From Oryzomonas sp. (GTDB lineage Bacteria; Desulfobacterota; Desulfuromonadia; Geobacterales; Pseudopelobacteraceae): a stretch of 64,000 bases of DNA. This document shows, one piece after another, positions 494-16,101 of the stretch. The stretch covers positions 1 to 64,000 of the forward strand of contig JARLHN010000032.1 of the NCBI GenBank assembly GCA_031292255.1, written 5' to 3'. Position numbers and translations under genes: made by a program. The notes beneath the pieces were generated by a model that saw nothing but the letters and a program-made list of their open reading frames with translations, was not told the origin of the DNA and ran no database searches. Position 1 is the first letter of the stretch. Each line of letters opens with the position of its first letter.

Positions 494-1299
494 GGCCCCA
501 GCCTCACAAACTCCTCACTCTCTGTATCGAAAACCCACCAGCCATCCTCAATGTGAATATTGACGTGGTTGAGTTTCCGCATTGGCCCCTCGGTCATTGT
601 ATGGCCGAAAATCTGCTTAAACCGAGGATCCGTGTTTAGTCCCTCCCGCCGGCTGTCGAACCAGAAGATTCCACCAAAAGGATCGGATCCGCCCCTGGTC
701 GTCGCGATGTTGAACAAAGGCCCCTCACCGAAAAGTCCACTTGGGTCCGCGCTACGTCGAACCCGCTTCACCGCAAACTCCCGTTCAAACTCCTCGCAGA
801 TCCACGAGGCGATAGCCGATGAATCCCCGGAGCCCCATGGGGCGGAAGGAAGGGCGGCCGTCAGGGCGGTGGACACCCCAGCATGAGTGCAGAGCCAGTC
901 GCCGACGGCGTGGGCGGCCTTGATCTGGCCCTTCTTGCGGGCTATGTGATAACGGGCCTCGAAGATGTCTCGGTATTCGAGGCCTCTGGTCTCGTAGGTC
1001 CGGGCAAGATACTCGTTACCTCGCACCCACCGATCAGGATTGAATATGTGGCCATGTCGGGTAAAGCTGCTCCATGGCCGCTCCGGAGTGTATGGTAGGC
1101 AATGGTTGCCCCACACGAAGACACATTCGGAATCCAGTAAGAGATCGAGACAAGCCAGCTCGTCCTCGAACGGGACCTTTGGGTCCCTAGAATCGACAAT
1201 GTCGCCCAGGGCAACATGTTCTGCCTCGGGCTTGTAAGCGTGGAAGGCCTCCACCATTGCCAGGTCGCCATGTATGTCGCCGATTACAATGGCCATCAT
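490..1299 (-). CDS. PP2A-like metallophosphoesterase
   Basis: This is a calcineurin-like metallophosphatase of about 269 residues. The two-metal motifs are all visible in order: GDIHG near residue 6, a GD motif (ALGDIVDSRD), GNH (VWGNHCLPY), a later histidine (CTHAGVS) and the terminal GH (IFGHTMTEG). The chosen start is the ATG at 1299, because it overlaps the stop of the upstream membrane-protein gene (ATGA) and begins directly before the catalytic strand (MMAIVIGDIHG). A longer frame to 1338 would overlap that gene by 43 bases. Such phosphatases occur in phages and genomic islands. The substrate (protein phosphate, Ap4A or other) cannot be told. A truncated duplicate lies at 2075-2336. Confidence 0.85.
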   Translation of the reverse strand: MMAIVIGDIHGDLAMVEAFHAYKPEAEHVALGDIVDSRDPKVPFEDELACLDLLLDSECVFVWGNHCLPYTPERPWSSFTRHGHIFNPDRWVRGNEYLARTYETRGLEYRDIFEARYHIARKKGQIKAAHAVGDWLCTHAGVSTALTAALPSAPWGSGDSSAIASWICEEFEREFAVKRVRRSADPSGLFGEGPLFNIATTRGGSDPFGGIFWFDSRREGLNTDPRFKQIFGHTMTEGPMRKLNHVNIHIEDGWWVFDTESEEFVRLGP

Positions 1300-1544
1300 G
1301 GCATCCCCGTGAAGTGCAGGAAAATCGTTAACCCGCAAATCGTAACCGTAAAAATTAACCAGTAAACTGCCGCAGTAACCAGCGCTTCCTGATCTTTATC
1401 TGTTCGCGTACACGCCGCCATGCAGAAAATCAGCACACACACCACCACGGATATTCCGATAGCCCAGTACAAGACAGGCCTGAGGTATGGCCCCAGCATG
1501 AGATACGGGATGCTGATTGTAAAGCCTCGACTTGGCATATCCAC
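1296..1544 (-). CDS. small two-helix membrane protein (82 aa)
   Basis: This is an 82-residue hydrophobic protein with two predicted membrane helices (about residues 24-44, VLYWAIGISVVVCVLIFCMAA, and about 60-78, ending at GLTIFLHF), separated by a short charged loop (TRTDKDQEA). The stop overlaps the phosphatase start by four bases, so the two are likely co-translated. No family is recognised. The order membrane protein, phosphatase, 60-aa protein forms a tight three-gene unit. Whether it is a signalling, defence or maintenance unit cannot be read from the sequence. Confidence 0.6.
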   Translation of the reverse strand: MDMPSRGFTISIPYLMLGPYLRPVLYWAIGISVVVCVLIFCMAACTRTDKDQEALVTAAVYWLIFTVTICGLTIFLHFTGMP

Positions 1545-1615
1545 TCATTCAACCGTCAGTATCTGCTAATAGTGCGGCTTGTTGTTTTCCACACCAGTGG
1601 TGAGCCAGGCGAGGC

Positions 1616-1801
1616 TCATGCAAACAGCCCATATTCTATGCGTCCCAGGGTGTTCATAACCAACTCCGCCCCCTCAGGTGTTTTAAGCAACTCAGCAGGG
1701 ACCTTACCGCCAAGCGCCGGAATAGGCGAGTTGAACCATTGAATGGCCTTTTCCCGTGTCCCGAAAACTTCGATTGCACGTTCCAACACTTGCTCATCCA
1801 T
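1616..1801 (-). CDS. MbcA/ParS/Xre-type antitoxin, toxin-binding domain only
   Basis: This 61-residue protein matches the C-terminal toxin-binding domain of the MbcA/ParS/Xre (DUF2384) antitoxins. It shows the A-x-EVFG, KAIQWFNSPIPALGGK, P-x-ELL and GAELVMNTLGRIEYG pattern that normally docks onto RES-domain toxins. The usual N-terminal helix-turn-helix of about 60-80 residues is absent. The ATG at 1801 has its own SD (GGAG, about 9 bases upstream), so the short form looks genuine. The only reading frame overlapping its stop (ATGA) is 17 codons long and does not resemble a RES toxin, so no partner is visible. It could be an orphan antitoxin, an anti-toxin scavenger or a remnant of a degraded pair. 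Confidence 0.75.
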   Translation of the reverse strand: MDEQVLERAIEVFGTREKAIQWFNSPIPALGGKVPAELLKTPEGAELVMNTLGRIEYGLFA

Positions 1802-2074
1802 AATTTCATCTCCATTTTCTCATCATGTCCACTGCTGACGCCCGACAGAGAAGCTATATCCGCCGGCACTTCTAGTCTTCGCCTCGACGGCGATACATAT
1901 AATCCAGTCAGTACACGTAAGCTAAAATGATCGCAACAACCACGATCTCTATGATGTCAATGGTGACAATTCCATTTATTTATTTTGTCCCATCAGGATC
2001 TGCCGGCCAACCAGAAAACGGACGTAACATCAATGTAAATGACTGATATTAAAGATTAAGTGTGACAATTAATT
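1802..2074. other. AT-rich non-coding stretch with two GTGACAATT repeats
   Basis: No convincing gene is present. The segment is AT-rich compared with its flanks and carries the nine-base word GTGACAATT twice in direct orientation (1963-1971 and 2062-2070), the second extended to TGTGACAATTAATTA. This resembles the general look of TnsB-type binding sites in Tn7-like transposon ends, but no terminal repeat partner was identified on the other side of the tns genes. The end assignment is therefore speculative. Confidence 0.4.
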
Positions 2075-2336
2075 AGTCGTCGATCATGCTTTGTAGTTCG
2101 TAGATCGTCATGGCCCCAGCCTCACAAACCCCTCAGTTTACGTGTCTAAAACCCACCAGCCGTTCTCGATGTGGCCGGGTTTTCGTCGCAAACTCCCTAT
2201 CAAACTTCTCACAGACCCACGAGGCGATAACCGATGGATCCTCGGAGTTCCAGGGGCGGAAGGGAGTGCGGTCATCAGGGCAGTGGACACTCCGGCATGA
2301 GCGCAGAGCCGGTCGTCGACAGCGCGGGCTGCCCAA
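2075..2336 (-). pseudogene. decayed partial duplicate of the phosphatase and 60-aa gene
   Basis: This stretch is similar along its length to two separate pieces of 459-915. The part at 2075-2172 matches about 459-556 (the start of the 60-aa gene and the 3' end of the phosphatase). The part at about 2173-2336 matches about 760-915 (the middle of the phosphatase gene). The roughly 200 bases between are deleted. In one frame the fragment still encodes SVIASWVCEKFDREFATK, the counterpart of SAIASWICEEFEREFAVK in the intact gene. The copy of the small gene stops after 12 codons. The duplicate abuts tniQ, and its first 60 bases are read as the tniQ C-terminus. Confidence 0.8.
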
Positions 2337-3522
2337 GTAACGTCATAATATTGAGACGATTGAACCTCTTTGTCACCTCATTACAAAGCTCCGGATATCT
2401 GGATATTATTTCCCCCGGCGGACATTTGTAAACTTTGGCAATATCCTCTATACGCATTGAAGATGCTTTACTGGTTGCCACATCCCTAAGCAGGCCGTGC
2501 ATTTTGAGCCAGTTGACCTTATCAGGGTTGAATACCGGCAAACCGATGCCGGCAAACTCGGATGCGTCTTTACGAAACATTTTGTCCCCATCCATCGTCA
2601 ACACATCAAAGGGATCCATCTTAAATATTTTCGCTATCCAGAGAACCACGCCAAGTGTCGGCAGCATCTGGCCTGAAAGCAGCTTGCCAAACATCTTTTT
2701 TTTCAAAGAGACTTGCCGGTTTAATACCGGATCATGAATTTTTTTCATCCTGTACCCAATCAAATATCTAAGCAGAGAAGGTAATGTCGGCATATTTCGC
2801 TCAAATTCGATGGTGTTGTGCCATTCAAACAAACGGACAAAGAAATCGCTCCCTGTCTCATACGATCTTCTGGCCCTACAGTCCGCATTGCTGCCGAGCC
2901 AAGCGTTGCATTTTGAGCAAAAACCTACAACTGTCCTGAAGGTTAGGGGAGATGACACAACCCCGCAATACGGGCACGTTTTAAGAAGCTGGCTTCTATG
3001 AACTGGACACTTTTCGAAAACCTCCAGGCCCCATAAGAGCGGGTAATAAACTGTCTGATTTGCTGCACGTTGATCCTGAAGACAGTAAGGGCACCATACA
3101 TTAACACCTGATAAAAGCTTATAGTCGGAGAGAAGCCAGGAAAATGACTGCATTGTCAGGTTCTGGAGCCCCAGCCTGCCAGTGAGTTTTTCCAAAACAT
3201 CCACAAAGGTTGAGACATTCACACCCATTCCGTTCATTCCGGCAATAATTTCTTGACTACCGATAGTATTCTTGAGGTTGTAGCGACTCCCCGGGAAATA
3301 ATTGACGATTACTCTTCGCAACAACGCAGAAACAGACACCATATGTGCTGCGGCCAACCGGGCAAGATAGCTCGAGAGGCCTTCTACGAACGGGGTTCCG
3401 ACGCCGATGGGTTTGAGAGAGTAAAGATCCGTTGGTGTCAAGGACGTACCCGCATGCTTAGGAATGAATTCGTATAAGTCATCGTCACTATTTAAGACAG
3501 CCAAAAAATTATTATTCTTCAT
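2275..3522 (-). CDS. tniQ: TniQ/TnsD-family target-selection protein
   Basis: This is a 415-residue TniQ-family protein. The N-terminus has the family core (PFVEGLSSYLARLAAAH), followed by a zinc-binding region with CPYC, CPVH, a second CPYC and CSKC (about residues 140-215). In Tn7-like elements this protein selects the target, either directly through DNA binding (TnsD) or through a CRISPR effector (TniQ proper). At about 400 residues it is between the two usual sizes. The start overlaps the tnsC stop by four bases (3519-3522), so the two are coupled. The last 20 or so residues (after RFNRLNIM) are encoded by the decayed phosphatase duplicate, so the native C-terminus may be lost. Confidence 0.85.
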   Translation of the reverse strand: MKNNNFLAVLNSDDDLYEFIPKHAGTSLTPTDLYSLKPIGVGTPFVEGLSSYLARLAAAHMVSVSALLRRVIVNYFPGSRYNLKNTIGSQEIIAGMNGMGVNVSTFVDVLEKLTGRLGLQNLTMQSFSWLLSDYKLLSGVNVWCPYCLQDQRAANQTVYYPLLWGLEVFEKCPVHRSQLLKTCPYCGVVSSPLTFRTVVGFCSKCNAWLGSNADCRARRSYETGSDFFVRLFEWHNTIEFERNMPTLPSLLRYLIGYRMKKIHDPVLNRQVSLKKKMFGKLLSGQMLPTLGVVLWIAKIFKMDPFDVLTMDGDKMFRKDASEFAGIGLPVFNPDKVNWLKMHGLLRDVATSKASSMRIEDIAKVYKCPPGEIISRYPELCNEVTKRFNRLNIMTLLGQPALSTTGSALMPECPLP

Positions 3523-4613
3523 GTCTGGACCCCAACCGGATCGCGGACAGGTTTACGTTGGAAGGCGTACTTTCTTTTTTTTGACTTTGGCTTATCGTCC
3601 TCGGCAAGCTTTCTGGAAAAATCGATGCCAAGCCGTGCTTTCAGGGTGAGCATTGAATCATCCGGCGGCGTCAACAAAGCCTCGCCTTCTAATAGCTCAT
3701 TAGCCATTTTATTCCTTTGATCGTATGAATACATCGAGGCCAACAGATCGGCTTTGGTCAAAGCACTGCTTCCTTCCCCCACAACCAGCTTTATTGCCTT
3801 GTTGATCCAACCACTCAAGATGCCTACGCAGCCCAAGGAGCCAATATAGAAATCCTCTATCATGTCGGTCATTGTAAAATCGCATGGAATAGGAAGTTTA
3901 GCGGCAAACGATTTCACAATACCACCGAAAGCACGAAAGTCATTTATATCGTCAAACCGGTAGCGAGGGAAATGCACGTCGATGCTCCGTCTGCTTAATT
4001 GCCCACTTAGGTTGCGAAAAGAGAGTAGTTCATACGTGCCAATAAGTACGATCACCGTTCCGGTAAGATTGGCTAGCGACTTGATATAATCCAATTGTTC
4101 GTGGAGGCCGGTGGATGATGCGCCTTTTGCAATATGTTGTGCTTCATCAATGATCAGTACTTTGACACGCCTGTAGTGCAGAGCATTCTCGAAAGCGAGC
4201 CTCAACTCATGACCGGGCGAACGAATATCGGCGCGAGCTCTCCAAAAGAATGCGGAACAACGGGGGTCGCCGGTTTTATTCTGGGCAAGTGGATCGTGAA
4301 GCACCATCAAAGCCCTGCGGTAAAACTCTTTCCAACTGAACTGCCGAGCATCGGAATATGGAGCTTCTATCACCGCCGCTGGCATGTGGGAATTATCAAA
4401 CGTTTCATCTTCATCGCGGGACTCTTTGTCCAATGACTTGCAAATGAGATTGGCAAGTGTCGACTTGCCGACACCGGTCGGCCCGAACATAAAAACAATG
4501 TCGCCTGCATCCGCCTGACTTATGGCAAGATTCAGTCGAGTTACGACAAATTTCAGCCGTGGATGGTTGATCGTCATTTCTCCAAATTTTCTTACTGAAT
4601 CCAGCTTCTGCAT
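3519..4613 (-). CDS. tnsC: TnsC-like AAA+ ATPase, transposition regulator
   Basis: This is a 364-residue AAA+ ATPase. Walker A is GPTGVGKS (residues 44-51), Walker B is KVLIIDEAQH (about 151-160), and the sensor-like strand is VIVLIGTYEL. The C-terminal tail is basic (KPKSKKRKYAFQRK). In Tn7-like systems TnsC polymerises on target DNA and connects TniQ/TnsD with the TnsAB transposase. The start is the ATG at 4613 with SD GGAG five to seven bases before it. The gene begins 14 bases after the tnsAB stop and overlaps tniQ by four bases. The order tnsAB, tnsC, tniQ is the standard core of this element class. Confidence 0.9.
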   Translation of the reverse strand: MQKLDSVRKFGEMTINHPRLKFVVTRLNLAISQADAGDIVFMFGPTGVGKSTLANLICKSLDKESRDEDETFDNSHMPAAVIEAPYSDARQFSWKEFYRRALMVLHDPLAQNKTGDPRCSAFFWRARADIRSPGHELRLAFENALHYRRVKVLIIDEAQHIAKGASSTGLHEQLDYIKSLANLTGTVIVLIGTYELLSFRNLSGQLSRRSIDVHFPRYRFDDINDFRAFGGIVKSFAAKLPIPCDFTMTDMIEDFYIGSLGCVGILSGWINKAIKLVVGEGSSALTKADLLASMYSYDQRNKMANELLEGEALLTPPDDSMLTLKARLGIDFSRKLAEDDKPKSKKRKYAFQRKPVRDPVGVQT

Positions 4614-4627
4614 TAATTCGCTCCTTT

Positions 4628-7228
4628 CTAAATTTCTTCGAACACTTCAAAATCATTATCAAAATACGGCAATGCCGGGAAATCAGCTTCGTTCTCTACT
4701 CGTTCCGTTTTTACATCGCGTATCTTGCGAATTTCGGCCGCTTTACGCATTTCTTTCAATTCAGACTCGACATCCTGAGTTTCAGCAATAAACGCAGCAA
4801 CTTTTTGGGCATTGATAACCAGCTTTTTATTGTGGTTACTGCGTCGCCTTATGATTTCTTGGGTTATCATTGCAATTTCTTTTTCTGATCGGCCCTGTAG
4901 CCTAGCGTAGTACTGGGATGTGCAGCGCTGCCACTTATTCTTGACGAATGCGTAGGCAGTACCTATGTCAAAAGGGTCGTAACGTACAGGAACATCCAGG
5001 CCGGTGGCAGAGTGCAGTAATTCATGCCAGTAGTAGAAGTTGTTGATTTTGATTCCACGTGACCGGATCACTTTTGCATGACCTTTGGGAGTGGATGGCA
5101 GCGTGCCGATAATAAAGGATTCATCGTAACGCATGAGTTTCATGGGCCGTGCCCCATGCTTGGCAAGCCCACGCTCGAAAGCTTTTTGCGGCGACTCCCC
5201 CAAAGCGGGGTGATCCAAATCTTCATATACTTCAGCAAAGTAACGTCCGATCCTTTCTTTCAGTTTTGGCAGCGTCCAAACTGCCAAGTTAGCTGGATTC
5301 ACCGATTTGGTAACTTGACGCACATTAACCATGATCTTCGTATTGCCTAGCAAAGAATGGACAAACTGCGTATTGGTAACCCCAAAAAGACGCTCTAGAA
5401 CAGAACCGTAGCGGGGTTGGGCACCGGGACGGCTTTTCTTGACGATGCCGTGAAACGCCATGAGTTGTTCAAAATAGACGCTATTGAAGTCAGCACCTCC
5501 GTCAACCACTATATTTTGCGGCAGACGATTATAAATACGCACGCACTCCCGTATGACCATCATGCAGGAGCGGTAGCTCGGCGGTTCAAAGGATAGGATA
5601 TAGGCGAGGATGCATCTGGAGTTGGCGTCAACCATCAGAGTGAGCCAGGGCCTTCCCAGATTGTTACCAGTGACGGAGTCAACCAATTGGATATCCAGTT
5701 CCGTATGATCGAGGTGCACAATCTCGAAGGGTCGGTCGCCATGACGAGGAGTCGTCATTTCCAGCTCCCAGTGAAATACATCAAGCTGGTAAGCAGCGCG
5801 AAAACCCTTGCGACTGTTTTCTACTTTCTTTGCATCAAGTTTTTTCAGCACTTTAGTGACAGTTTTGAAACTAGCAGCAATAACATCCTTTTTTTCACAT
5901 TCATTGCAGTAGTGGCCGTAGAGGGTTATGGGGTTGATCTGAGTCGTTATGAGGTACTGTTCGTCGATGCAGACCTGCATCAGATTGTACGATTCCGCCG
6001 GCAGTTTAGGGAGGCGGTTGCCTCGTTCAGACTTCCTGTCCAAAAGCCCGAGATATCCGTAGCCATAACGGATTTCTGCCTCCCGATATCGTTTCAGCCA
6101 CGAATAAATTGTTGAGGATGGCCGGTCTGGAACGTCACCGGATAGGTATGGCAAAATTGCTGAATACTTTCTGTTTGCGTCTTCGTGAGCCATCGGGCCT
6201 TTGCCATGCAACAACTCGCAGATATCATTGTTGCTTAACCCTTTGCCAAGCCCCCTAATGGCCCCAATTTTCACCAACCCCTCGAATTCATTGTTTCCTA
6301 ATGGAGTGACGCCACCTTGTTCATTCTTCAGATATATGTTTTCATCGCCGCAATTTATGATCTGGAACAGCCTGCCATCCCATATGAGAGTTGATCCAGG
6401 TTCGACTGTTACTGAGGATTCGAAAGTCGGTGCGGTCGGCATGCTGATGCTTGAGTGTTCCCTGCTGGTATAGACAGGGGTTTTGTCATGCTCGTTGAGC
6501 GGGTGGACATGTAAATTGACGTAGAGCTCGTTGCGAGCTATCAACTGAAATATATCGTCAGCGGTAAAACGTTCTGAGTTTCCAATGAGCTCGGAGAGGA
6601 AAATGCCCTGCCTGCAGGACACAAGGGCCTTGAGGAACGATTCGGCTTCAGAGCCAACTGGATAGTCGGGTGCCTGGAGATAGTCACTTAAATATTCGAT
6701 GTTCCTTTGCCATACCCAGTTGATCTCCGCCGATGATCGGACCCTGAAGTTGAGACCGTATTTGCCGGCGTATTCTTCACCCGGCGGGCAGCGCCACTGC
6801 TTTTCATCATTGCGCACAAACCTTTCCGATTTCTCCGCCAAGCGCTCCAGCTCCTGCTCAACTTTGCACTCTTCCCAGTCAGCCGTACCGTCGTTCCTTA
6901 TGACGAAAAAATCTGGAGTAGTTAGCACGGTGGTTTGGCGTCCAGTACTAGCCCGGTAAGAGATTTTGATCGGCCCAGGTTGGTCGTAATATTCAAGGAC
7001 ATTGTCGTCGAACTCATATTCCCTTATGAATGCCAGCTCGACCTTATGGCTTTCGAATTGGACGGTGTGCCCCATCTTGCGGCTCAGGTAGCGGCCGGTG
7101 ACGTTGCTCTTGCCGCCTTGAACCCTCCGTGTGGGCTCGCTGGTACGTATCCGGGTAATCAGTGCAGCTGTGGTTGGATTAAACTGATTACGCGTCAGCC
7201 AGTCAGAGAATTGAATTTCGTCCATCAT
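4628..7228 (-). CDS. tnsAB: TnsA-TnsB fusion transposase
   Basis: One 866-residue chain contains both transposase activities. Residues 1 to about 230 are a TnsA endonuclease with the PD-ExK set (E64, D106 in TPDFFV, E120-K122 in EECK), which makes the 5' cuts. The middle and C-terminal part is a TnsB-like DDE recombinase with acidic residues near D505 (HLDHTE), D576 (VVDGGADF) and E612 (SVLERLFG), a DD35E-like spacing. The start is placed at the ATG pair at 7228, where the TnsA domain begins. Upstream in-frame codons cross a perfect dyad and encode no recognisable domain. Natural TnsAB fusions are known in several Tn7-like and CRISPR-associated families. No CRISPR gene is in view. Confidence 0.92.
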   Translation of the reverse strand: MMDEIQFSDWLTRNQFNPTTAALITRIRTSEPTRRVQGGKSNVTGRYLSRKMGHTVQFESHKVELAFIREYEFDDNVLEYYDQPGPIKISYRASTGRQTTVLTTPDFFVIRNDGTADWEECKVEQELERLAEKSERFVRNDEKQWRCPPGEEYAGKYGLNFRVRSSAEINWVWQRNIEYLSDYLQAPDYPVGSEAESFLKALVSCRQGIFLSELIGNSERFTADDIFQLIARNELYVNLHVHPLNEHDKTPVYTSREHSSISMPTAPTFESSVTVEPGSTLIWDGRLFQIINCGDENIYLKNEQGGVTPLGNNEFEGLVKIGAIRGLGKGLSNNDICELLHGKGPMAHEDANRKYSAILPYLSGDVPDRPSSTIYSWLKRYREAEIRYGYGYLGLLDRKSERGNRLPKLPAESYNLMQVCIDEQYLITTQINPITLYGHYCNECEKKDVIAASFKTVTKVLKKLDAKKVENSRKGFRAAYQLDVFHWELEMTTPRHGDRPFEIVHLDHTELDIQLVDSVTGNNLGRPWLTLMVDANSRCILAYILSFEPPSYRSCMMVIRECVRIYNRLPQNIVVDGGADFNSVYFEQLMAFHGIVKKSRPGAQPRYGSVLERLFGVTNTQFVHSLLGNTKIMVNVRQVTKSVNPANLAVWTLPKLKERIGRYFAEVYEDLDHPALGESPQKAFERGLAKHGARPMKLMRYDESFIIGTLPSTPKGHAKVIRSRGIKINNFYYWHELLHSATGLDVPVRYDPFDIGTAYAFVKNKWQRCTSQYYARLQGRSEKEIAMITQEIIRRRSNHNKKLVINAQKVAAFIAETQDVESELKEMRKAAEIRKIRDVKTERVENEADFPALPYFDNDFEVFEEI

Positions 7229-7245
7229 TTTCGCGCACCCCAACT

Positions 7246-7271
7246 CTGGTTCATTGAATGCAATGAACCAG
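7246..7271. promoter_or_regulatory. operator-like dyad O1 before tnsAB
   Basis: A perfect dyad CTGGTTCA-N10-TGAACCAG lies 18 bases upstream of the tnsAB start. The full inverted repeat is longer (13-base arms at 7244-7256 and 7261-7273). The N10 form recurs at 7376-7401 and 7958-7983. The position between the probable promoter and the ATG suggests repression of the transposase gene. Confidence 0.7.
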
Positions 7272-7375
7272 AGTATGCAAAAAAACTGGTGATCCATAAA
7301 ACAACACAACCAATCGATTGATGTTCCGCCCATTAAGCAATGTTTTGGAGTCCATATTTGCAACATGTTTAAAAT

Positions 7376-7401
7376 CTGCTTCAGTGAATCAGATGAATGA
7401 G
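7376..7401. promoter_or_regulatory. operator-like dyad O2, weaker copy
   Basis: CTGCTTCA-N10-TGAATGAG has the same spacing as O1, with one and two mismatches in its half-sites. It lies in the gap between the winged-helix gene stop (7415) and tnsAB. It is a weaker site and could help cooperative binding with O1, which starts 130 bases away. Confidence 0.5.
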
Positions 7402-7414
7402 GTGTGTAGAAAAA

Positions 7415-7975
7415 TTACTTGATGCGGTAGTAAACAAATTCGACGCCGCCGGTTTCCGCAGTTTCTTCCCTACGCAATAAAAAACCTTTCTCCCATAGTT
7501 GCTTAAGCTTTGTGCTTGCATTCGTTAGCTTCATGTCGAGGGCTTTGGCAACATCATTCGTTTTTACAAAATCATTAGACATCGCGAATTTCAGGGTTTC
7601 CCAATTACCTTTACTTGGTTCCGGTCCGATCAACTCCCAGTCGTCATCATCCCATATGACCATCGGTTGATCTTTTTTGTCAGCCCCATGCCCCCAATTA
7701 TCGCGCAGGTCTTCATTTGGGAAATCGACCAGACAAAACCCTTTGTCTCCCCTGTACCTGCGCGCAATCTCCATGACGCTTTCTCTCGGGAATGAGGCAT
7801 CAGTTCTGTCAACTCCCTTGAGGGATATGCGAAATATCCTGACTCCGGGGTTTGCCTCGACTACGCCCAATAGCTTTGAATGCACTTCCCGACCTTCAAT
7901 GTGCCCCCACCCATCTGGGGATGCCATTAGTTCTCGGAGAATTATGGTGACAACTTTCTGATTCATGTGATTCAT
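7415..7975 (-). CDS. STAS-like (DUF4325-type) plus winged-helix protein
   Basis: This is a 186-residue protein with two parts. Residues about 28-95 look like a STAS-like DUF4325 fold (strand RIFRISLKGVD, then TDASFPRESVMEIARRY, then GFCLVDFPNED). Residues about 122-186 form a winged-helix domain (VKTNDVAKALDMKLTNASTK, then LWEKGFLLRR and a wing YYRIK). The start is the ATG at 7975, 17 bases after the stop of the GHKL gene. A second ATG at 7966 is possible, and no strong SD decides between them. STAS-like proteins encoded next to GHKL ATPases resemble anti-anti-sigma and anti-sigma pairs. Here the STAS-like part carries its own DNA-binding domain, and dyad O3 overlies the start. Domain calls are from pattern only. 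Confidence 0.65.
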   Translation of the reverse strand: MNHMNQKVVTIILRELMASPDGWGHIEGREVHSKLLGVVEANPGVRIFRISLKGVDRTDASFPRESVMEIARRYRGDKGFCLVDFPNEDLRDNWGHGADKKDQPMVIWDDDDWELIGPEPSKGNWETLKFAMSNDFVKTNDVAKALDMKLTNASTKLKQLWEKGFLLRREETAETGGVEFVYYRIK

Positions 7976-7983
7976 TGAACCAG
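7958..7983. promoter_or_regulatory. operator-like dyad O3 over the start of the winged-helix gene
   Basis: CTGATTCA-N10-TGAACCAG differs from O1 by one base. It covers both candidate start codons (7975 and 7966) of the STAS-like/winged-helix gene. Binding here would block translation initiation or transcription into that gene, as expected for an autoregulated regulator gene. Confidence 0.65.
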
Positions 7984-7991
7984 ATTGGCAA

Positions 7992-8921
7992 TTATATGTC
8001 AAGGGTAAACGTGAAACAAATATGCGTCCCGCCAATATCAGGAAGGTCGCCAAAGCAAATTGGGGTTCTCAACGCATATTTCCCTTTGTCGGGAAAGAGG
8101 ACGATCCTGATATTGGACAGCCTGATATCTAAGCAGGCACCAAATTTAATCGCCCAATCAGCACTCGTTTTAAGGCCACAACCCCTTCCTTGACCATGAC
8201 GGGATACACCTCTCTTTAAGACTTCAATGAGTAATTTAGTGTCATTCAATCTATTTAACTTCGGAAATTCTGCAGTCAAAGTTGGCCTAAGGGTTTGTAG
8301 TATGCCTCTACCGCTATCTGATACAGCAATCCTTATTAATTTTCCGCCATTATATATTTCAACTCCTGAAAATCCATCAATATTTGTAGAGCTGTGTTGT
8401 AAAATATTATCGATAAGTTCACCTATAATAGTAAATACTGCTACATTTAATCGTCTGGCAAACTGACTATTTTTTATTGCGTTGACGATGGCATCAGCAA
8501 GTTGAGGGGTAACAGTTTGGTCAGGTCTGTCAGCATTAATATTTATCAACTTAATGACCCTGTCTGTCAAGATTCTGTCGTAGGATCGACCTACTGAAAT
8601 ACTGTTGACAGGACAGATCGAAACCGAAGAGCTGAGATGTTTAAAAAAACCATCACCATCGAATTGCTTAATTGTGTCTTCGGCATCAAAACAAAAAGAG
8701 ACATTGTGGTTATTTGCGCACAATTGGTTCACATATGACAGGAGAAATGTCATGGCATCAACTGTAAGTTCGCAATATGGCGCAAAATGGAACTCGAAGT
8801 CGCGTAACTCTGAGGGCGCTAATTGGTTTTCAGTACTCATAATTAGGTCAAGATCGGAAGACCTAAGAAGCTGGGGGCCAAAACAATAATGCATTACCGA
8901 CAAAGTCCCTTCCGACAACAT
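7992..8921 (-). CDS. GHKL-fold ATPase (histidine-kinase-like, no kinase domain)
   Basis: This is a 309-residue protein with a C-terminal GHKL (Bergerat) ATP-binding domain: N-box ELIDNILQHS (168-177), G1 box SDSGRGI (201-207) and G2 box RHGQGRGCGLK (241-251). There is no HisKA phospho-acceptor or receiver. The N-terminal half (about 1-130) is not recognised. Such stand-alone GHKL proteins act in partner-switching modules with STAS proteins. The next gene, 17 bases downstream, encodes a STAS-like winged-helix protein, and tnsAB follows. The true start is uncertain: ATGs at 8921, 8894 and 8840 are all in frame and none has a well-placed strong SD. Confidence 0.8.
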   Translation of the reverse strand: MLSEGTLSVMHYCFGPQLLRSSDLDLIMSTENQLAPSELRDFEFHFAPYCELTVDAMTFLLSYVNQLCANNHNVSFCFDAEDTIKQFDGDGFFKHLSSSVSICPVNSISVGRSYDRILTDRVIKLININADRPDQTVTPQLADAIVNAIKNSQFARRLNVAVFTIIGELIDNILQHSSTNIDGFSGVEIYNGGKLIRIAVSDSGRGILQTLRPTLTAEFPKLNRLNDTKLLIEVLKRGVSRHGQGRGCGLKTSADWAIKFGACLDIRLSNIRIVLFPDKGKYALRTPICFGDLPDIGGTHICFTFTLDI

Positions 8922-8938
8922 TATAATATTACAATATT

Positions 8939-9139
8939 TTAATGATTGAAATGTTCAGAAGTTGGACAGTATTCCGCAAAGGAGGGAGAAGGGCAATGTT
9001 TTTCATATTCGAGGCATAAAATCGCCCCAGTCCAGATGTTCTCATCAGAGTTCCTATCGCAAAACACCTCCATATCTCCAAAGATTGAACTCCCAAACCC
9101 TCCGCTGAACCATAACCATGTAAATGCCTTTGGAACCAT
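8939..9139 (-). CDS. possible small cysteine-rich protein (66 aa)
   Basis: A 66-codon frame ends 17 bases before the GHKL gene on the same strand. The product is acidic and rich in Cys/His toward its end (ILCLEYEKHCPSPSFAEYC, then PTSEHFNH), a pattern that could bind metal. It has no recognisable family and no SD. Its ATG lies inside an inverted repeat, and an in-frame TAA sits five codons upstream. It may be the first gene of the GHKL operon or simply chance. Confidence is low. Confidence 0.3.
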   Translation of the reverse strand: MVPKAFTWLWFSGGFGSSIFGDMEVFCDRNSDENIWTGAILCLEYEKHCPSPSFAEYCPTSEHFNH

Positions 9140-9166
9140 AAATTTAGAAAATTACAAATTTATGGT
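9135..9166. repeat. inverted repeat near the island/dcw boundary
   Basis: This is a perfect inverted repeat with 11-base arms (ACCATAAATTT at 9135-9145 and its complement at 9156-9166) and a 10-base spacer. It is AT-rich and has no T-run, so it is not a terminator. It lies between the minus-strand island genes and the mraZ promoter and could be an operator for the GHKL operon or part of a transposon end. Confidence 0.55.
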
Positions 9167-9203
9167 CCAGGTAACAAAAACCCCCACAACTTCAGGTTTT
9201 ATC

Positions 9204-9232
9204 TTGACAAACACCTTGACCACCGCTATATA
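9204..9232 (+). promoter_or_regulatory. sigma70-type promoter of the dcw operon
   Basis: TTGACA (9204-9209) and TATATA (9227-9232) are separated by 17 bases, a near-consensus sigma70 promoter. The predicted transcription start is at about 9238-9240, just before the three MraZ boxes. Confidence 0.8.
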
Positions 9233-9243
9233 TTTCCCATGCA

Positions 9244-9269
9244 GTGGAAAAATGTGGAATTAGGTGGAA
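9244..9269 (+). promoter_or_regulatory. three MraZ boxes (GTGGAA, 10-base period)
   Basis: GTGGAA occurs at 9244-9249, 9254-9259 and 9264-9269, exactly one helical turn apart. MraZ family regulators bind short TGG-containing direct repeats with this spacing before their own gene. The boxes lie downstream of the promoter and overlap the mraZ ribosome binding site (AGGTGGA), so bound MraZ would autorepress the dcw operon. Confidence 0.75.
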
Positions 9270-9270
9270 T

Positions 9271-9768
9271 ATGATCGACTCGATCGACATATTCGGGGGG
9301 GAAACCCCGAGCACCATCGACGGCAAGGGAAGAACCTGCATCCCGGCCAAATTCAGGGATGCCCTCGCCAACCTGTCGGAGGACACGCGCTTCATCATAA
9401 CCAAAGCCGCTCCCGTGGACCTGGGTGACGGCACCTTTGGCCGCGGCCTGTCCGTGTACCCCCTGGACACCTGGGCCGGGATCAAGAAGAAGATCCTTGC
9501 CAACGAAGGGGGCTTCACCTCAGCACAGTTGAACAGTATCAAACGTCAAATCGTCAACCCGGCGGAGGAGTGCAGCGCCGACAAGCTCGGCCGGGCGCTG
9601 ATCCCCTCGTCCCTGCGGCTGCACGCCGAATTGGAGCGGGACATCTGGTTCGTCGGCATGGGACAACGCTTCGATATCTGGAGCAAGGGAACCTACTGCC
9701 GCATCAACGCACAGGACGAGAAAAACTTCCCGCTGGATTCGGAAGCACTCGCCGCAATGGGCGTCTAA
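9271..9768 (+). CDS. mraZ: transcriptional regulator MraZ
   Basis: This is a 165-residue MraZ with two SpoVT/AbrB-like half-domains ([19 protein letters not shown] near residue 15 and [14 protein letters not shown] near residue 102). It is slightly longer than the usual 143-152 residues, mainly between the halves. The start is the ATG at 9271, preceded by AGGTGGAAT. An earlier in-frame GTG at 9244 is the first MraZ box and is unlikely to be used. It is the first gene of the dcw cluster and represses it by binding the upstream boxes. rsmH starts on the next base after the stop. Confidence 0.95.
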
Positions 9769-10743
9769 GTGGATACCTTCCATCATCTGTCCGTCATGCC
9801 GGACGAGGTCATGACATTCTTGCAACCCCGGCCGGGCGGAATCTACCTGGACGGCACCCTGGGCGGCGGCGGGCATGCGGCGCTGATCGCCCGGCAGTGC
9901 GGCCCCGGCAACGGGATGGTGATCGGGATCGATCAGGATCACGAGGCGCTGGAGGCGGCCGGTCGCAGGCTGGCCGAGTTCGGCGCCACGGTGCGCCTGG
10001 TCCATGGCAACTTCGCCGAACTCGACCGGCATCTCGACACGCTGGCGGTGACCGATCTGGACGGGTTCCTCCTCGACTTGGGGGTCTCCTCGCACCAACT
10101 GGACAGCGGGGGGCGCGGTTTCAGCTTTCAGCAGGACGCCCCGCTGGACATGCGCATGGACGCCGGCGGCGCGGAAACCGCCGCAGACCTGGTAAACAGC
10201 CTGCCGGAGCAGGAGCTGGAACGGATCATCCGCGACTATGGCGAGGAGCGATGGGCAAGGAGGATCGCAGCATTCATCGTCAAGGCCCGCGCCGAACAGG
10301 CGATCCTTACCACGCTGCAATTGGCGGACGTCATCAAAGGGGCCATTCCGCGGGCCAAATGGGAGGAGCGCATCCATCCCGCCACCCGCACCTTCCAGGC
10401 CCTGCGGATCGCCGTCAACCACGAACTGGAACGGCTGGAACAGGGACTGCGCGCGGCCCTCGACCGTTTAAAGCCTGGTGGACGCGGAGTGGTCATCTCG
10501 TTCCACTCCCTGGAGGACCGGATCGTCAAGCATATCTTCCGGGAGTACGCCACCGGCTGCATCTGTCCGCGCCAACTCCCGGTCTGCATCTGTGGCCGGA
10601 AACCGCGGGTGAAGATCCTGACCAGCCGACCGGTCACGGCAACGGAGACCGAGACCGACCGTAACCCGCGGGCGCGCAGCGCCAAACTGCGGACAGCGGA
10701 AAAACTGAATATAAGCGAGAAGTCAGCCTCTTCATTTTATTAA
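9769..10743 (+). CDS. rsmH: 16S rRNA (cytosine(1402)-N(4))-methyltransferase
   Basis: This is a 324-residue RsmH/MraW, which N4-methylates C1402 of 16S rRNA using S-adenosylmethionine. It shows the SAM-binding GTLGGGGH motif (about residues 29-36), the [15 protein letters not shown] segment, and the family C-terminal region with a CxC-rich stretch ([13 protein letters not shown]). Translation starts at a GTG directly after the mraZ stop, so expression depends on mraZ translation. The length is normal for the family. Confidence 0.96.
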
Positions 10744-10808
10744 ACGGGGCCGTCGCTTCGAACAAACGCATTTTCAGATTCACGATTCACAATGTAAGGA
10801 GGTACGGC

Positions 10809-11150
10809 ATGGCACAGGCAAGAACCGACTACGGCAAGGTCGTTGCCCCGCGCCCCTTGAGCGGAACCGAACTGGTCGCCCAACGGGTGGACATGTTCAG
10901 GTTCCTGATGGTCTGCATGGTCCTTTTCACAATAGTCTCGGTCTTCCATGTGTGGTCGCGCTGCAAGTTGATCGACCTGAATCTGCACATAGCCGAGACA
11001 AACCGTCAGCTCAAGGATGCGGAACAGGAGCAGAAGCGGCTCAAACTTGAGGCGGAATCCCTCAAGACACCGGCCCGTATCGAAACCATCGCCAAGAGCG
11101 ATCTCGCCATGGGGTTGCCCACAGAGCAACAGGTAATCGTCGTCAAATGA
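10809..11150 (+). CDS. ftsL: cell division protein FtsL
   Basis: This is a 113-residue bitopic membrane protein with a short cytoplasmic N-terminus, one membrane helix (about residues 30-50, MFRFLMVCMVLFTIVSVFHVW) and a periplasmic coiled coil (about 54-95, NLHIAETNRQLKDAEQEQ). FtsL forms the FtsQLB complex that activates FtsWI. A perfect SD (AAGGAGG) precedes the ATG. The stop overlaps the ftsI start by four bases. The identity rests on position between rsmH and ftsI and on topology, as FtsL sequences diverge strongly. Confidence 0.9.
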   Translation: MAQARTDYGKVVAPRPLSGTELVAQRVDMFRFLMVCMVLFTIVSVFHVWSRCKLIDLNLHIAETNRQLKDAEQEQKRLKLEAESLKTPARIETIAKSDLAMGLPTEQQVIVVK

Positions 11151-13123
11151 GGGATGACCGGGAAAAATGGGCCCGTGTCCGGATCGTCATGATCGGGACA
11201 ATATTCGGCCTGTTGTTCCTGAGCGTCACCATCCGGGCGTTCTATCTGCAGATACTCCAGCACGAGGAGCTGGTCAAGAAGGCCGAACGGCAGCACCAGC
11301 ATATCGTGCAACTCACCCCGGGACGAGGCATCATCATGGACCGCAACGGCACGCCGCTGGCGGTGTCTGTGGACATGGATTCCTGCTATGCGGAGCCACG
11401 CCATATCAAGGATATGGACGGTACGGCCGGGGTGCTGGCGCCGTTTCTCGGGACGTCGAAGCAGGAACTGCTAAAAAAACTCACCAGCGACAAAGGGTTT
11501 GTCTGGATCGAGCGGCGCCTTACGCCGGAGGTCGCGGCCCGCATCAAGAACCTCAAGCTGACCGGTATTGGCTTTGTCTCCGAGTCGAAACGATTCTATC
11601 CCAATTGCGAGGTTGCCTCCCACGTGGTAGGATTTACCGGCGTGGACCCGGTCGGACTGGAAGGGGTGGAACGCAGGTACGATTCCGTCATCCTGGGCAA
11701 CACCGGCTACATGGTGACCGAGCGTGATGCCCTGGGGCGCGACATAGCCCTCAAGGATACGGTCATCAAAAATGCTTCGCCGGGCAAGAACATCATTCTT
11801 ACCCTGGACAAGAACATCGAATACATCGCGGAAAAAGAGTTGGCCAAGGCGGTTACGGAGAGCGGCGCCAAAAACGGCATGGCCCTGGTCATGGAGCCGG
11901 ATACCGGCAGGGTTCTCGCCATGGCCAACTATCCCTCCTTCAACCCCAACGCCTATGCCCATTATTCCCAGGCCATGCTGCGCAACCGTGCCGTCGCCGA
12001 CAGTTTCGAGCCCGGATCGACCTTCAAGATCTTCCTGATCTCGGCGGCGCTGGAAGAGAAGGTCATCAGGCCCACGGACATCATCAACTGCGAGAACGGC
12101 CACTATACCATTGCCGACCGGACCATCCACGACACCCATAATTATGCCCGGTTGTCCGTGAGCGACGTTCTCAAGTATTCAAGCAACATCGGCGCTGCCA
12201 AGATCGGCGCCAAACTGGGCGATGAGCGTCTTTTCCACTATCTGAGGAATTTTGGATTCGGTGAGCGCACCGGTGTGGACCTTCCCGGAGAGTCTCCCGG
12301 CAATCTCCGGGACAAGCGCCGCTGGTACGGGGTTGATCTGGCCACCATCTCCTTCGGTCAGGGGGTCACGGCCTCGGCCATCCAACTGGCCGGCGCGGTT
12401 TCCGCCGTTGCCAACGGCGGCACGCTCATGAAGCCCTATATCGTCGAGCGAATCCTGGACGACAGCGGCCACGAGGTGCAGAGATTCGATCCGCAGGCGG
12501 TCCGCCGCGTTATCTCCGGGGATACGGCCAAGAAGGTCACCAGGATGATGGAGAGCGTCACCGGCGCCGGCGGGACCGGCTTCAATGCCGCCATAGACGG
12601 TTTTCTCGTGGCCGGCAAGACCGGCACGGCCCAAAAGGCTGACCCGGTAACCCACGGCTACTCCGCAACCCGAAGGACCGCCTCCTTTATCGGTTTCGTA
12701 CCGGCCGACAATCCCAAACTGACCATCCTGGTGGTGGTTGACGAGCCGAAGACCAGCCCCTACGGCGGCGTTGTGGCAGCCCCGGCTTTTCGCGCCATTG
12801 CCGTGAATGCGCTTGCCTACCTGAAAATCACGCCCAAGGGGGAGAGCGGCAAGGCGACCAGGACCATCGAGGCCCAATCGCCCCCTCCCCCGAAGACGGT
12901 TGCCGTGTCGGAGGGAGACGACGCCCCGGATGCATCTGCCGAGGTCGCCGTCATGCCGGATTTCCGGGGCATGAGCATGCGCCGGGTCATGCAGGTGATG
13001 GAGAAGCGCGGCATCAATATCAGGTTGATGGGAAGCGGGCAGGCCGTGGAACAGAATCCGCCCCCCGGCCAGACGATCCGGGGAGCAGACGAGGTTTGGG
13101 TCAAATTCGCGCCTTCCGCATGA
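11147..13123 (+). CDS. ftsI: peptidoglycan transpeptidase FtsI (PBP3) with PASTA domain
   Basis: This is a 658-residue class B penicillin-binding protein that crosslinks septal peptidoglycan. It has an N-terminal anchor helix (about 10-30), a PBP dimerisation domain (RGIIMDRNGTPLAVS), and the transpeptidase motifs SxxK (STFK near residue 291), SSN (near 345) and KTGT (near 491). Unlike the E. coli protein it ends with one PASTA domain (about 598-655, VMPDFRGMSMRRVMQ then NPPPGQTI), which may sense muropeptides or lipid II. The start overlaps ftsL (ATGA). A hairpin followed by six T residues separates it from murE. Confidence 0.96.
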   Translation: MRDDREKWARVRIVMIGTIFGLLFLSVTIRAFYLQILQHEELVKKAERQHQHIVQLTPGRGIIMDRNGTPLAVSVDMDSCYAEPRHIKDMDGTAGVLAPFLGTSKQELLKKLTSDKGFVWIERRLTPEVAARIKNLKLTGIGFVSESKRFYPNCEVASHVVGFTGVDPVGLEGVERRYDSVILGNTGYMVTERDALGRDIALKDTVIKNASPGKNIILTLDKNIEYIAEKELAKAVTESGAKNGMALVMEPDTGRVLAMANYPSFNPNAYAHYSQAMLRNRAVADSFEPGSTFKIFLISAALEEKVIRPTDIINCENGHYTIADRTIHDTHNYARLSVSDVLKYSSNIGAAKIGAKLGDERLFHYLRNFGFGERTGVDLPGESPGNLRDKRRWYGVDLATISFGQGVTASAIQLAGAVSAVANGGTLMKPYIVERILDDSGHEVQRFDPQAVRRVISGDTAKKVTRMMESVTGAGGTGFNAAIDGFLVAGKTGTAQKADPVTHGYSATRRTASFIGFVPADNPKLTILVVVDEPKTSPYGGVVAAPAFRAIAVNALAYLKITPKGESGKATRTIEAQSPPPPKTVAVSEGDDAPDASAEVAVMPDFRGMSMRRVMQVMEKRGINIRLMGSGQAVEQNPPPGQTIRGADEVWVKFAPSA

Positions 13124-13127
13124 TCGT

Positions 13128-13164
13128 CACAACCTGCACACGTCGGCAGGTTGTGTCATTTTTT
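13128..13164 (+). terminator. terminator-like hairpin between ftsI and murE
   Basis: A perfect 10-base stem (CACAACCTGC at 13128-13137 with its complement at 13146-13155) has an 8-base loop and is followed by TCATTTTTT. It has the form of an intrinsic terminator or attenuator inside the dcw cluster. The murE SD (GGAG) follows the T-run at once, so read-through would still translate murE. Confidence 0.6.
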
Positions 13165-13174
13165 GGAGAATCGC

Positions 13175-14716
13175 ATGAAACTTGCCAACATCCTTGCCCC
13201 GACGCCGGACGCTGAGCTTCACGGCAGCGGAACAGCCGAGATCACGGCCCTGAGCTGCGACTCGCGCCGTGTCCGGCCGGGAACGCTCTTCTTCGCCCTG
13301 CGGGGCACGGCGGCCGATGGGCATCGTTTCATCCCGCAGGCGGTCGAGGATGGCGCTGCCGCGGTAGTGCTCGAAGATGCCGCATTTGCCCCCGCCGGCA
13401 TCCCCTGGGTCAGGGTGGCGGACGGCCGTTCGGTCATGGCTCGCATGGCGGCGGCGTTCTACGGCGATCCCACCGCAGACGTGCCGCTGATCGGTATTAC
13501 CGGCACCAACGGCAAGACCACTACCACCTACCTGATCGAGGCGATCCTGGCAGCGGCGGGCATGCCGGCAGCGGTACTCGGCACCATCAGCTACCGCTTC
13601 GGCGCAACCACCATATCGGCATCCCACACCACACCGGAATCCACTGAATTGCAGGCCGCGTTCCGCCAGTTGGCCGATGCCGGCGCCAAGGCCTTCGTGA
13701 TGGAGGTTTCATCACACGCCCTGGAGCAGAAACGGGCCGACGGCTGCCACTTCGACGTGGGTGTCTTCAGCAACCTGACCCGCGACCACCTGGACTATCA
13801 CGGCAGCATGGAGCACTATCTGCACTCAAAGGAGCGCCTCTTTGCCGAACTGCTGCAACCCACTGCCGCCAAACCGCGCCGCAGGGCCGCGATCAACATG
13901 GACGACAGCTACGGCGCACAGGTGGCGGGGCGGGCCGCCTGCCCGGTGATCAGCTACGGGATAGATTATCCCGGCGACGTGCGGCCGGTGGAGGTGGCCA
14001 TCACCGTTAACGGCATCAGCGGGACCCTGGCGACTCCCAAGGGCGAATTTTTCTTTGCTTCCAAGCTGCTGGGGCGTTTCAACCTTTCCAACATTCTGGC
14101 GGCCGTGACAGCCGGCATCGCCCTGGATTTGCCCCTTACGGCCATCAAGTCCGGCATCGAGGGGCACACCATTGTCCCGGGACGCCTGGAGCGGGTTGAC
14201 AACAGCTTCGGCATCACATGCCTGGTTGACTATGCCCACACCGACGACGCCCTGCACAACGTGCTCGCGGCCCTGAGGGAAATAGCAACGGCCCGAATCA
14301 TTACCGTCTTCGGCTGCGGCGGCGACCGCGATCCGGGCAAACGCCCGATCATGGGGCAGATCGCGGCACAGATGAGCGACCTGGCCATCGCCACCTCGGA
14401 CAACCCACGTACCGAGGAGCCGCCCACCATACTGGCGCAGATCAGGGCCGGCATCACGCCCCTCGGCATACGGGAATATTCGTCTGAGGAACTGGAGGCA
14501 CGGCCGGCATTCGACGAGAAGGGTTTCGTCGTGCTGGAAAACCGGAGGGCCGCCATCCGCCTGGCGACAAGGGTGGCACAGCAAGGCGACATCCTGCTCT
14601 TGGCCGGCAAAGGGCATGAGGATTACCAGATTATCGGCACTACCAAGCACCACTTTGACGACCGCGAGGAGGCTATTGCGGCATTTGGGGAGAAAAGGCC
14701 GGGATGTTTACCGTAG
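13175..14716 (+). CDS. murE: UDP-MurNAc-tripeptide synthetase MurE (meso-DAP adding)
   Basis: This is a 513-residue Mur ligase that adds meso-diaminopimelate to UDP-MurNAc-L-Ala-D-Glu. The ATP loop is [11 protein letters not shown] (about residue 109), and the DNPR motif (SDNPRTEEP, about residue 410) is specific for meso-DAP rather than lysine. The start is the ATG at 13175 behind TTGGAGAATCGC. An upstream ATG at 13151 falls inside the preceding hairpin/T-run and is rejected. It overlaps murF by 13 bases in another frame. Confidence 0.96.
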   Translation: MKLANILAPTPDAELHGSGTAEITALSCDSRRVRPGTLFFALRGTAADGHRFIPQAVEDGAAAVVLEDAAFAPAGIPWVRVADGRSVMARMAAAFYGDPTADVPLIGITGTNGKTTTTYLIEAILAAAGMPAAVLGTISYRFGATTISASHTTPESTELQAAFRQLADAGAKAFVMEVSSHALEQKRADGCHFDVGVFSNLTRDHLDYHGSMEHYLHSKERLFAELLQPTAAKPRRRAAINMDDSYGAQVAGRAACPVISYGIDYPGDVRPVEVAITVNGISGTLATPKGEFFFASKLLGRFNLSNILAAVTAGIALDLPLTAIKSGIEGHTIVPGRLERVDNSFGITCLVDYAHTDDALHNVLAALREIATARIITVFGCGGDRDPGKRPIMGQIAAQMSDLAIATSDNPRTEEPPTILAQIRAGITPLGIREYSSEELEARPAFDEKGFVVLENRRAAIRLATRVAQQGDILLLAGKGHEDYQIIGTTKHHFDDREEAIAAFGEKRPGCLP

Positions 14717-16098: not shown

Positions 16099-16101
16099 AC
16101 C

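What the first reader, a model, noticed from the sequence alone, without database searches (positions are those of the whole stretch)
7246..7983. Three equal-spaced dyads link a GHKL/STAS-winged-helix pair with a Tn7-like transposase gene
CTGGTTCA-N10-TGAACCAG occurs perfectly at 7246-7271 (18 bases before tnsAB), with one mismatch at 7958-7983 (over the winged-helix gene start), and as a weaker copy at 7376-7401. Same length, same spacing and relevant positions argue for one regulator acting on both genes. The winged-helix protein is the obvious candidate, with the GHKL ATPase as its control partner. I know of no described Tn7-like element controlled by a GHKL/STAS-type switch.
Basis: partly seen in the sequence, partly recalled or inferred. 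Interest (0 to 1): 0.85.

Follow-up and report, generated by a model that had tools for sequence, protein, structure and literature searches.

The report
Defence-type repressor switch on transposon genes
A two-gene switch of the kind that bacteria use to turn on anti-virus defences sits inside a Tn7-like jumping element, and its likely DNA binding sites lie in front of the jumping genes, so the element may time its moves with a borrowed alarm system.

Summary
The three dyads are real: in the 3.72-Mb genome only two sites fit CTGGTTCA-N10-TGAACCAG within one mismatch, both here. The gene pair is a CapK/CapS-type switch (EMBO J 2026, PMC13373217). The winged-helix protein matches two solved CapS proteins (E 6e-41, 1.7e-36) and keeps the phosphorylated serine and DNA-contacting residues. 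The dyads are CapS operators by comparison: a matrix made only from the six sites of window and closest relative has its best site at a capS junction in 14 of 16 other CapKS loci (0.35 expected), at spacing 10 only. All three sites recur in place in a relative with 70% identical TnsAB; five relatives that keep tnsAB without CapKS lack the dyad. The pair lies inside the transposon: ends, 5-bp duplication and empty site were found. My searches found no report of CapKS controlling transposition genes. Most likely CapS represses capS and tnsAB until CapK phosphorylates it. The trigger is uncertain: the tryptophan that CapK needs for ssDNA sensing is leucine here, against tryptophan in 13 of 13 other complete CapKs compared. 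New variant of a known kind. Binding, phosphorylation and transposition were not tested.

The parts
9177..9181 (.). Target-site duplication AAAAC, right copy; the left copy is on contig C37:1336-1340
   Evidence: Junctions and the empty site of G443 printed
9100..9176 (.). Right end of the Tn7-like element, ending in ...TTTATGGTCCAGGTAACA, with repeats of the end motif TGAACCATAA (0-1 mismatch) at 9106, 9132 and 9160
   Evidence: the left end starts at C37:1335 with TGTGACTTGAACCATAAA
7992..8894 (-). capK-like gene: STAS-like N-terminal part plus GHKL kinase/ATPase, no N-terminal HTH (alternative start at 8921)
   Evidence: HATPase_c E 2.8e-6; alignment with 14 other CapK; start chosen by alignment
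7997..8002 (-). Possible -35 TTGACA of capS; a -10-like TTCAAT lies 17 bases on at 7974-7979, inside site 1
   Evidence: Read by eye from the sequence; similar in several relatives; the consensus scan does not list it
7415..7966 (-). capS-like gene: STAS domain plus winged helix, ATG at 7966 by alignment (the open frame also has ATG 7975); phospho-acceptor Ser codon at 7793-7795
   Evidence: PDB 9z72 E 6e-41 and 9z71 E 1.7e-36
7376..7401 (.). Operator site 2, just after the capS stop codon (weaker copy)
   Evidence: same place in G425
7246..7271 (.). Operator site 3, 17 bases before tnsAB: CTGGTTCA-N10-TGAACCAG; perfect arms extend over 7243-7274
4628..7228 (-). tnsAB: fused TnsA endonuclease and TnsB DDE transposase, 866 aa
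   Evidence: Pfam Tn7_TnsA-like_N and Mu-transpos_C; PDB 9bw1 1012 bits with the family profile
3519..4613 (-). tnsC: AAA ATPase (TniB/AAA_22)
   Evidence: Walker A motif position
2275..3522 (-). tniQ
   Evidence: Pfam TniQ E 1e-12

Best explanation
The GHKL/winged-helix pair is a CapK/CapS-type phospho-switch carried inside a Tn7-like transposon. There they hold down capS and the tnsAB-tnsC-tniQ operon. When CapK is activated it phosphorylates the STAS serine of CapS, the dimer falls apart, and the transposase genes are expressed. Shown here by sequence: homology, conserved residues, operator identity across the family, gene order, transposon borders. Inferred from the experiments of PMC13373217 on the E. 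roggenkampii pair: binding, repression, phosphorylation and derepression. In that pair the trigger is single-stranded DNA from DNA damage; whether it is the trigger here is open.
For: CapS homology to solved structures; the phospho-acceptor Ser, the DNA-contacting Asn and Lys and the Gly-Gly of the wing are invariant in 11 of 11 CapS; the kinase Asn is kept in 15 of 15 CapK. The geometry equals the published wide palindrome, TTAA-N10-TTAA against TTCA-N10-TGAA, with the same TGG flank on one side. Unpicked test: 14 of 16 other CapKS loci have their best site at a capS junction, 0.35 expected, 0 to 4 of 16 at other spacers from 4 to 16. Window and G425 keep 44 of 48 arm bases, 18 of 30 spacer bases and 76 of 142 bases outside. 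No dyad with up to 3 mismatches in 14-20 kb around the tnsAB of five relatives without CapKS. One CapS in the genome.
Against: No binding, expression or phosphorylation data. CapK lacks the N-terminal HTH of the published CapK, and the Trp required for ssDNA activation is Leu (13 of 13 other complete CapK have Trp). Only one other genome (G425, a 6.7-kb contig) shows the same arrangement, and there the start of capK is cut off. Two of 16 loci fail the operator test. The end motif of the transposon shares TGAACCA with the operator half-site. No clear tnsAB promoter was found.
Confidence: 0.8

Rival explanations
1. The dyads are TnsAB binding sites: the transposase represses its own operon, and the GHKL/winged-helix pair is mere cargo.
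For: The half-site TGAACCA(G) shares seven bases with the end motif TGAACCATAA, found at both transposon ends, and transposase binding near tnsA at the element end is known for Tn7 (recalled).
Against: The same operator is at capS junctions in 14 of 16 CapKS loci, most of which show no Tn7-like gene nearby. G457, with TnsAB 68-69% identical and the same end motif (TGTACCCTGAACCATAAATTT, L030:1234), has no dyad within 3 mismatches.
Confidence: 0.06
2. The dyad before tnsAB acts as an RNA hairpin that limits translation of tnsAB.
For: The leader folds into a long hairpin (window z -5.3, G425 z -3.4). One outer pair differs on both sides between the two genomes (C-G against G-C, read), which fits an RNA stem as well as a longer DNA palindrome.
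Against: Any palindrome folds so. In G425 the inner stem is broken by a mismatch and the spacer is not conserved. The same motif sits over capS starts and before other operons in relatives.
Confidence: 0.04
3. CapS represses capS and tnsAB, but CapK no longer answers to DNA damage (Trp to Leu); the switch is locked, or it listens to another signal.
For: W68A abolishes ssDNA-stimulated kinase activity in the published CapK; the aligned residue is Leu here, and 13 of 13 other complete CapK have Trp. Related VapK proteins keep an aromatic residue, Phe, there.
Against: The catalytic Asn and the N and G boxes are kept. The change is known from one genome, since the capK start is missing in G425.
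Confidence: 0.4
4. CapS controls only capKS; the site before tnsAB is a chance or relic copy without effect.
For: Only two genomes show the arrangement.
Against: The site before tnsAB is the best site of the window and is conserved 16 of 16 in its arms in G425, while the surroundings keep about half of their bases.
Confidence: 0.07

Closest known systems
CapK+CapS (PMC13373217; PDB 9z71-9z73)
   Same: capK before capS; STAS-wHTH repressor with the phospho-acceptor Ser; GHKL kinase; wide N10 palindromes at capS and before the target operon
   Different: Target is a Tn7-like transposase operon, not an immune or stress operon; the paper's main text has no mention of transpos, Tn7 or mobile. CapK lacks the HTH and the ssDNA-stacking Trp. 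Half-site TTCA instead of TTAA
VapKSC (same paper)
   Same: HTH-less GHKL kinase with a STAS partner
   Different: VapS has no winged helix and binds a VapC toxin; here the STAS protein has a winged helix and the next gene is tnsAB
CvkR, MerR-type repressor of type V-K CASTs (PMC9938897, passages seen)
   Same: Element-borne repressor of transposition genes
   Different: MerR family, no kinase partner, other motif, no effector site recognised
RtaC/RtbC, Xre-family regulators of I-F3 CASTs (PMC11406308, passages seen)
   Same: Co-opted regulator of RNA-guided Tn7-like transposition
   Different: Xre proteins; no phospho-switch
CapW/BrxR and CapH+CapP (described in PMC13373217)
   Same: DNA-damage-responsive controllers of adjacent immune operons
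   Different: WYL repressor; protease plus repressor
Tn7-like elements with fused TnsA-TnsB, the group of I-B2 and I-D CASTs (PMC11406308 passages; PDB 9bw1)
   Same: TnsAB fusion aligned over its length with 9bw1; tnsC and tniQ follow
   Different: CapKS at the right end; cas genes were not searched for, and part of the element is not assembled

Membership tests
CapS | STAS plus wHTH protein homologous to solved CapS | tested here: met
   E 6e-41 and 1.7e-36 over 162-178 residues
CapS | Conserved phospho-acceptor Ser; DNA-contacting Asn, Lys and Gly-Gly | tested here: met
   Invariant in 11 of 11
CapS | Palindromic operators at the capK-capS gap and before the downstream operon | tested here: met
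CapS | Binds DNA as a dimer and is released by phosphorylation | not testable with these tools
   Needs experiment
CapK | GHKL domain with catalytic Asn, gene directly before capS | tested here: met
   15 of 15 keep the Asn; HATPase_c E 2.8e-6
CapK | N-terminal STAS domain | tested here: inconclusive
   Aligns with other CapK; structure model of moderate confidence, weak fold matches only
CapK | N-terminal HTH domain | tested here: not met
   Absent in the window and also in the Deferrisomatales, Reyranella, Sphingobium, G406, G616 and G633 CapK; its deletion had no effect in the paper. So CapK-like rather than CapK in the strict sense
CapK | Trp that stacks on ssDNA | tested here: not met
   Leu in the window, Trp in 13 of 13 other complete ones, G425 cut off
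CapKS | Downstream immune or stress operon | tested here: not met
   Next genes are tnsAB, tnsC, tniQ
VapKSC | VapC-like gene after a STAS protein without wHTH | tested here: not met
   wHTH present; next gene is tnsAB
Tn7-like transposon | TnsA, TnsB, TnsC, TniQ; TGT...ACA ends; 5-bp duplication | tested here: met
CRISPR-associated transposon | cas genes and CRISPR array in the element | not tested
   Not searched; the element is split over two contigs
LexA-regulated operon | LexA box at the sites (motif recalled) | tested here: not met
   No hit at the sites with up to 1 mismatch; 15 in 64 kb against 17.4 expected

The most novel reading that the evidence does not exclude
A Tn7-like transposon has taken over a defence-island alarm switch, so that its own transposition genes are released by a kinase signal (DNA damage or ssDNA, or a retuned signal given the Trp-to-Leu change), letting it move when the host is under phage or genotoxic attack.
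Probability: 0.45. Interest if true: 0.8.

Novelty: new variant of a known kind. Interest (0 to 1): 0.64.

Why it matters
CapKS is described in front of immune and stress operons. Here the same operator code and gene pair stand before a transposase operon. If true, a Tn7-like element would have inducible, phosphorylation-based control of transposase supply in addition to target choice, and a defence regulator would have been turned to the service of the mobile element that carries it. It is directly testable with the published reporter design.

Tried and rejected
LexA-type box as the dyad's identity (motif recalled, from no call): no hit at the three sites. Consensus promoter and terminator scan: 2 promoter-like sites against 4.9 in shuffles, none at the operators, and 0 terminators. 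CapK profile against PDB sequences: no hit at E 0.01. The CapK model is of moderate quality (mean pLDDT 62.6); its PDB matches are weak, 0 at E 0.001 or better, though mainly GHKL folds, SpoIIAB among them. P0001 against phage records: no match. The phylum sample with the CapS profile gave the window and G305 only, 2 of 395 at E 1e-20. Weak hits L013-L018 (24-32% identity) were left out of the operator tests. Of 43 plasmid records with a CapS, 8 were opened.

The first matrix test used 21 training sites from 13 loci that I picked by eye, partly for their palindrome form, so, which needs no picking, carries the argument. Two of its 16 loci failed (L065, L066; CapS about 30-32% identical to the window's); L066 has a strong site at 2240 that is not at a capS junction. 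In one search the best place of L075 (G475, no CapKS) is 131 bases before its tnsAB start, but it scores 9.8, at noise level, and its letters do not resemble the dyad.

Full report
Observation. The three dyads are at the stated coordinates and are the only matches with up to 3 mismatches in 64 kb, 0.20 expected. In the genome only 7246 and 7958 are within one mismatch; 16 places are within three. There is one CapS in the genome. The gap between the first dyad and the tnsAB start codon is 17 bases. The 7246 site extends to perfect 14-bp arms.

The element. On the minus strand lie capK (8894-7992), capS (7966-7415), tnsAB (7228-4628), tnsC and tniQ. The same-genus genomes G441-G445 have no match to this TnsAB, and in five of five homology to the mraZ side begins at window 9175-9178. 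The other flank lies on contig C37. The transposon begins at C37:1335 with TGTGACTTGAACCATAAA and ends at window 9176 with TTTATGGTCCAGGTAACA; AAAAC flanks both ends and occurs once at the empty site of G443. CapKS is therefore inside the element, between tnsAB and its right end. The stretch between C37:1 and C12:1 is not assembled.

What the pair is. P0001 matches two solved proteins: 9z72/9z73 (E 6e-41) and 9z71 (E 1.7e-36). That these are the V. cholerae and E. roggenkampii CapS is inferred: the chain counts fit the paper, and the aligned letters of 9z71 fit WP_001567865.1, the paper's E. roggenkampii CapS, which I fetched in L063. Of PMC13373217 I read the abstract, the introduction, the results up to ssDNA activation of CapK, the VapKSC section, the discussion and the bioinformatics methods. 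It shows that CapS represses, and that CapK, activated by ssDNA, phosphorylates Ser54 and so frees the adjacent operon. 'transpos', 'Tn7' and 'mobile' have 0 occurrences in its main text; its supplements were not searched. The serine and the DNA-contacting residues are kept in 11 of 11 CapS, and the kinase Asn in 15 of 15 CapK.

What the dyads are. The published wide site is TTAA-N10-TTAA in TGGTTAAACAGCTTTATTTAATGA; here it is TGGTTCA-N10-TGAACCA. G406 and G616 have CTGGTTCA-N10-TGAA[GT]CAG at the capS start and CTGGTTCA-N10-TGAAACAG after its stop. A half-site matrix from the six sites of window and G425 was run over 16 other CapKS loci: the best site of the whole locus was at a capS junction in 14 of 16 (0.35 expected); with the other spacers from 4 to 16 it was 0 to 4 of 16. 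In reverse, a matrix from 21 hand-picked sites of 13 other loci ranked the three window sites 1, 2 and 3 (26.2, 26.2, 22.0; next 13.2). Window and G425 keep 44 of 48 arm bases, 18 of 30 spacer bases and 76 of 142 others.

Who has it. In 277 genomes of the class, this tnsAB family is in 8 (E 1e-60). CapKS is upstream in 2 (window, G425). It was not found in the 14-20 kb around tnsAB in 5 (G457, G419, G630, G475, G467), which also lack any dyad with up to 3 mismatches. The eighth (G616) has only 1 kb upstream of tnsAB. CapS is in 7 of the 277 (E 0.001): 2 beside tns and 5 beside operons with ubiquitin-like E1/E2/JAB genes (Pfam for G652, G406, G633 and G616; G626 by an E1 ORF 71% identical to that of G652). 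Elsewhere the pair precedes CBASS genes in a Deferrisomatales and a Reyranella genome and, by annotation, on a Vibrio plasmid, and multiubiquitin/ThiF operons on others. In the CapS tree the two tns-linked proteins form one clade (98/98) within a supported group of nine with defence-linked CapS (98/100). This fits one co-option; the root is not known.

A likely route. In G633 the CapKS-controlled operon lies directly beside tnsA-like and tnsB-like ORFs (read by eye) and genes with Pfam matches for TnsC and TniQ/TnsD. In G652 a TnsD gene lies about 4 kb after capS. Defence genes are common Tn7-like cargo (PMC8649781: start of abstract and passages seen). A cargo regulator could so have come to lie before the transposase (inference).

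Mechanism. Site 1 covers the capS start and a -10-like TTCAAT, 17 bases from TTGACA (by eye; the consensus scan does not list it). Sites 2 and 3 lie between capS and tnsAB, site 3 directly before it. All three also hold TTCA-N-TGAA, the spacing of the published narrow palindrome, so dimers may stack as the paper proposes. CapK phosphorylation would release them. The weak step is the input: the Trp needed for ssDNA activation is Leu in this CapK; the lysines K237 and K239 of the published protein are not conserved in the family anyway. DNA damage raising transposase expression is known elsewhere by the SOS route, for ISCR (PMC13393415, title and start of abstract in a listing only).

Rivals. 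TnsAB autoregulation is made unlikely by the dyads at CapKS loci beside defence operons, and by G457, which has the end motif but no dyad. The hairpin reading is weak because spacer and inner stem are not conserved, though one outer pair changes on both sides.

Novelty. Searches for GHKL with winged helix or DUF4325, for STAS-like regulators with CBASS or Tn7-like, for CapK/CapS with transposition, for Tn7-like with DNA damage or repressor, for Xre and CAST regulators, for CapW/CapH with transposon, and for Tn7-like with CBASS and kinase listed no paper on a Tn7-like element under a GHKL/STAS switch, as far as titles, abstracts and the passages I opened show. The library lacks most subscription papers. 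Known element-borne repressors are CvkR (PMC9938897, passages) and RtaC/RtbC (PMC11406308, passages). The system is a new variant of a known kind.

Noticed in passing
window 7992-8894 (capK): The position of the ssDNA-stacking Trp of CapK is Leu here, against Trp in 13 of 13 other complete CapK; G425 is cut off there.
   Followed up: partly
L089 (G633) 444-11419; L085 (G652) 9039-16510: CapKS-controlled ubiquitin-like operons lie next to other Tn7-like genes: tnsA- and tnsB-like ORFs, TnsC and TniQ in G633; a TnsD gene about 4 kb away in G652.
   Followed up: partly
window 7958-8002 and relatives: In several CapKS loci TTGACA and a -10-like hexamer end about 7 bases before the capS ATG, so capS may be read from a leaderless transcript.
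   Followed up: no
L063 (E. roggenkampii plasmid), 7 bases before the last base of the capS stop codon: A further wide palindrome, CCGCTTAA-N10-TTAACCAG, overlaps the capS stop codon, besides the published one 67 bases after it; the parts of the paper that I read name two sites.
   Followed up: no
window 9106-9176; C37:1319-1335; L030:1234: The transposon end motif TGAACCATAA shares TGAACCA with the CapS half-site; G457, which lacks CapKS, has the same end motif.
   Followed up: partly
window 456-919 and 2074-2333: A metallophosphoesterase gene and decayed fragments of a second copy (80-86% identical stretches) flank the end of tniQ; the tniQ frame runs into the fragment.
   Followed up: no
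L030 12036-18736 (G457): Where CapKS would be, G457 has divergent genes: a sigma-54-activator-like ORF (RtcR-like by eye) and type I restriction-modification-like ORFs.
   Followed up: no
L066 (Acinetobacter plasmid) 2240: A strong CapS-type site (score 23.0) lies far from the distant CapS of this record; it may belong to another operon.
   Followed up: no
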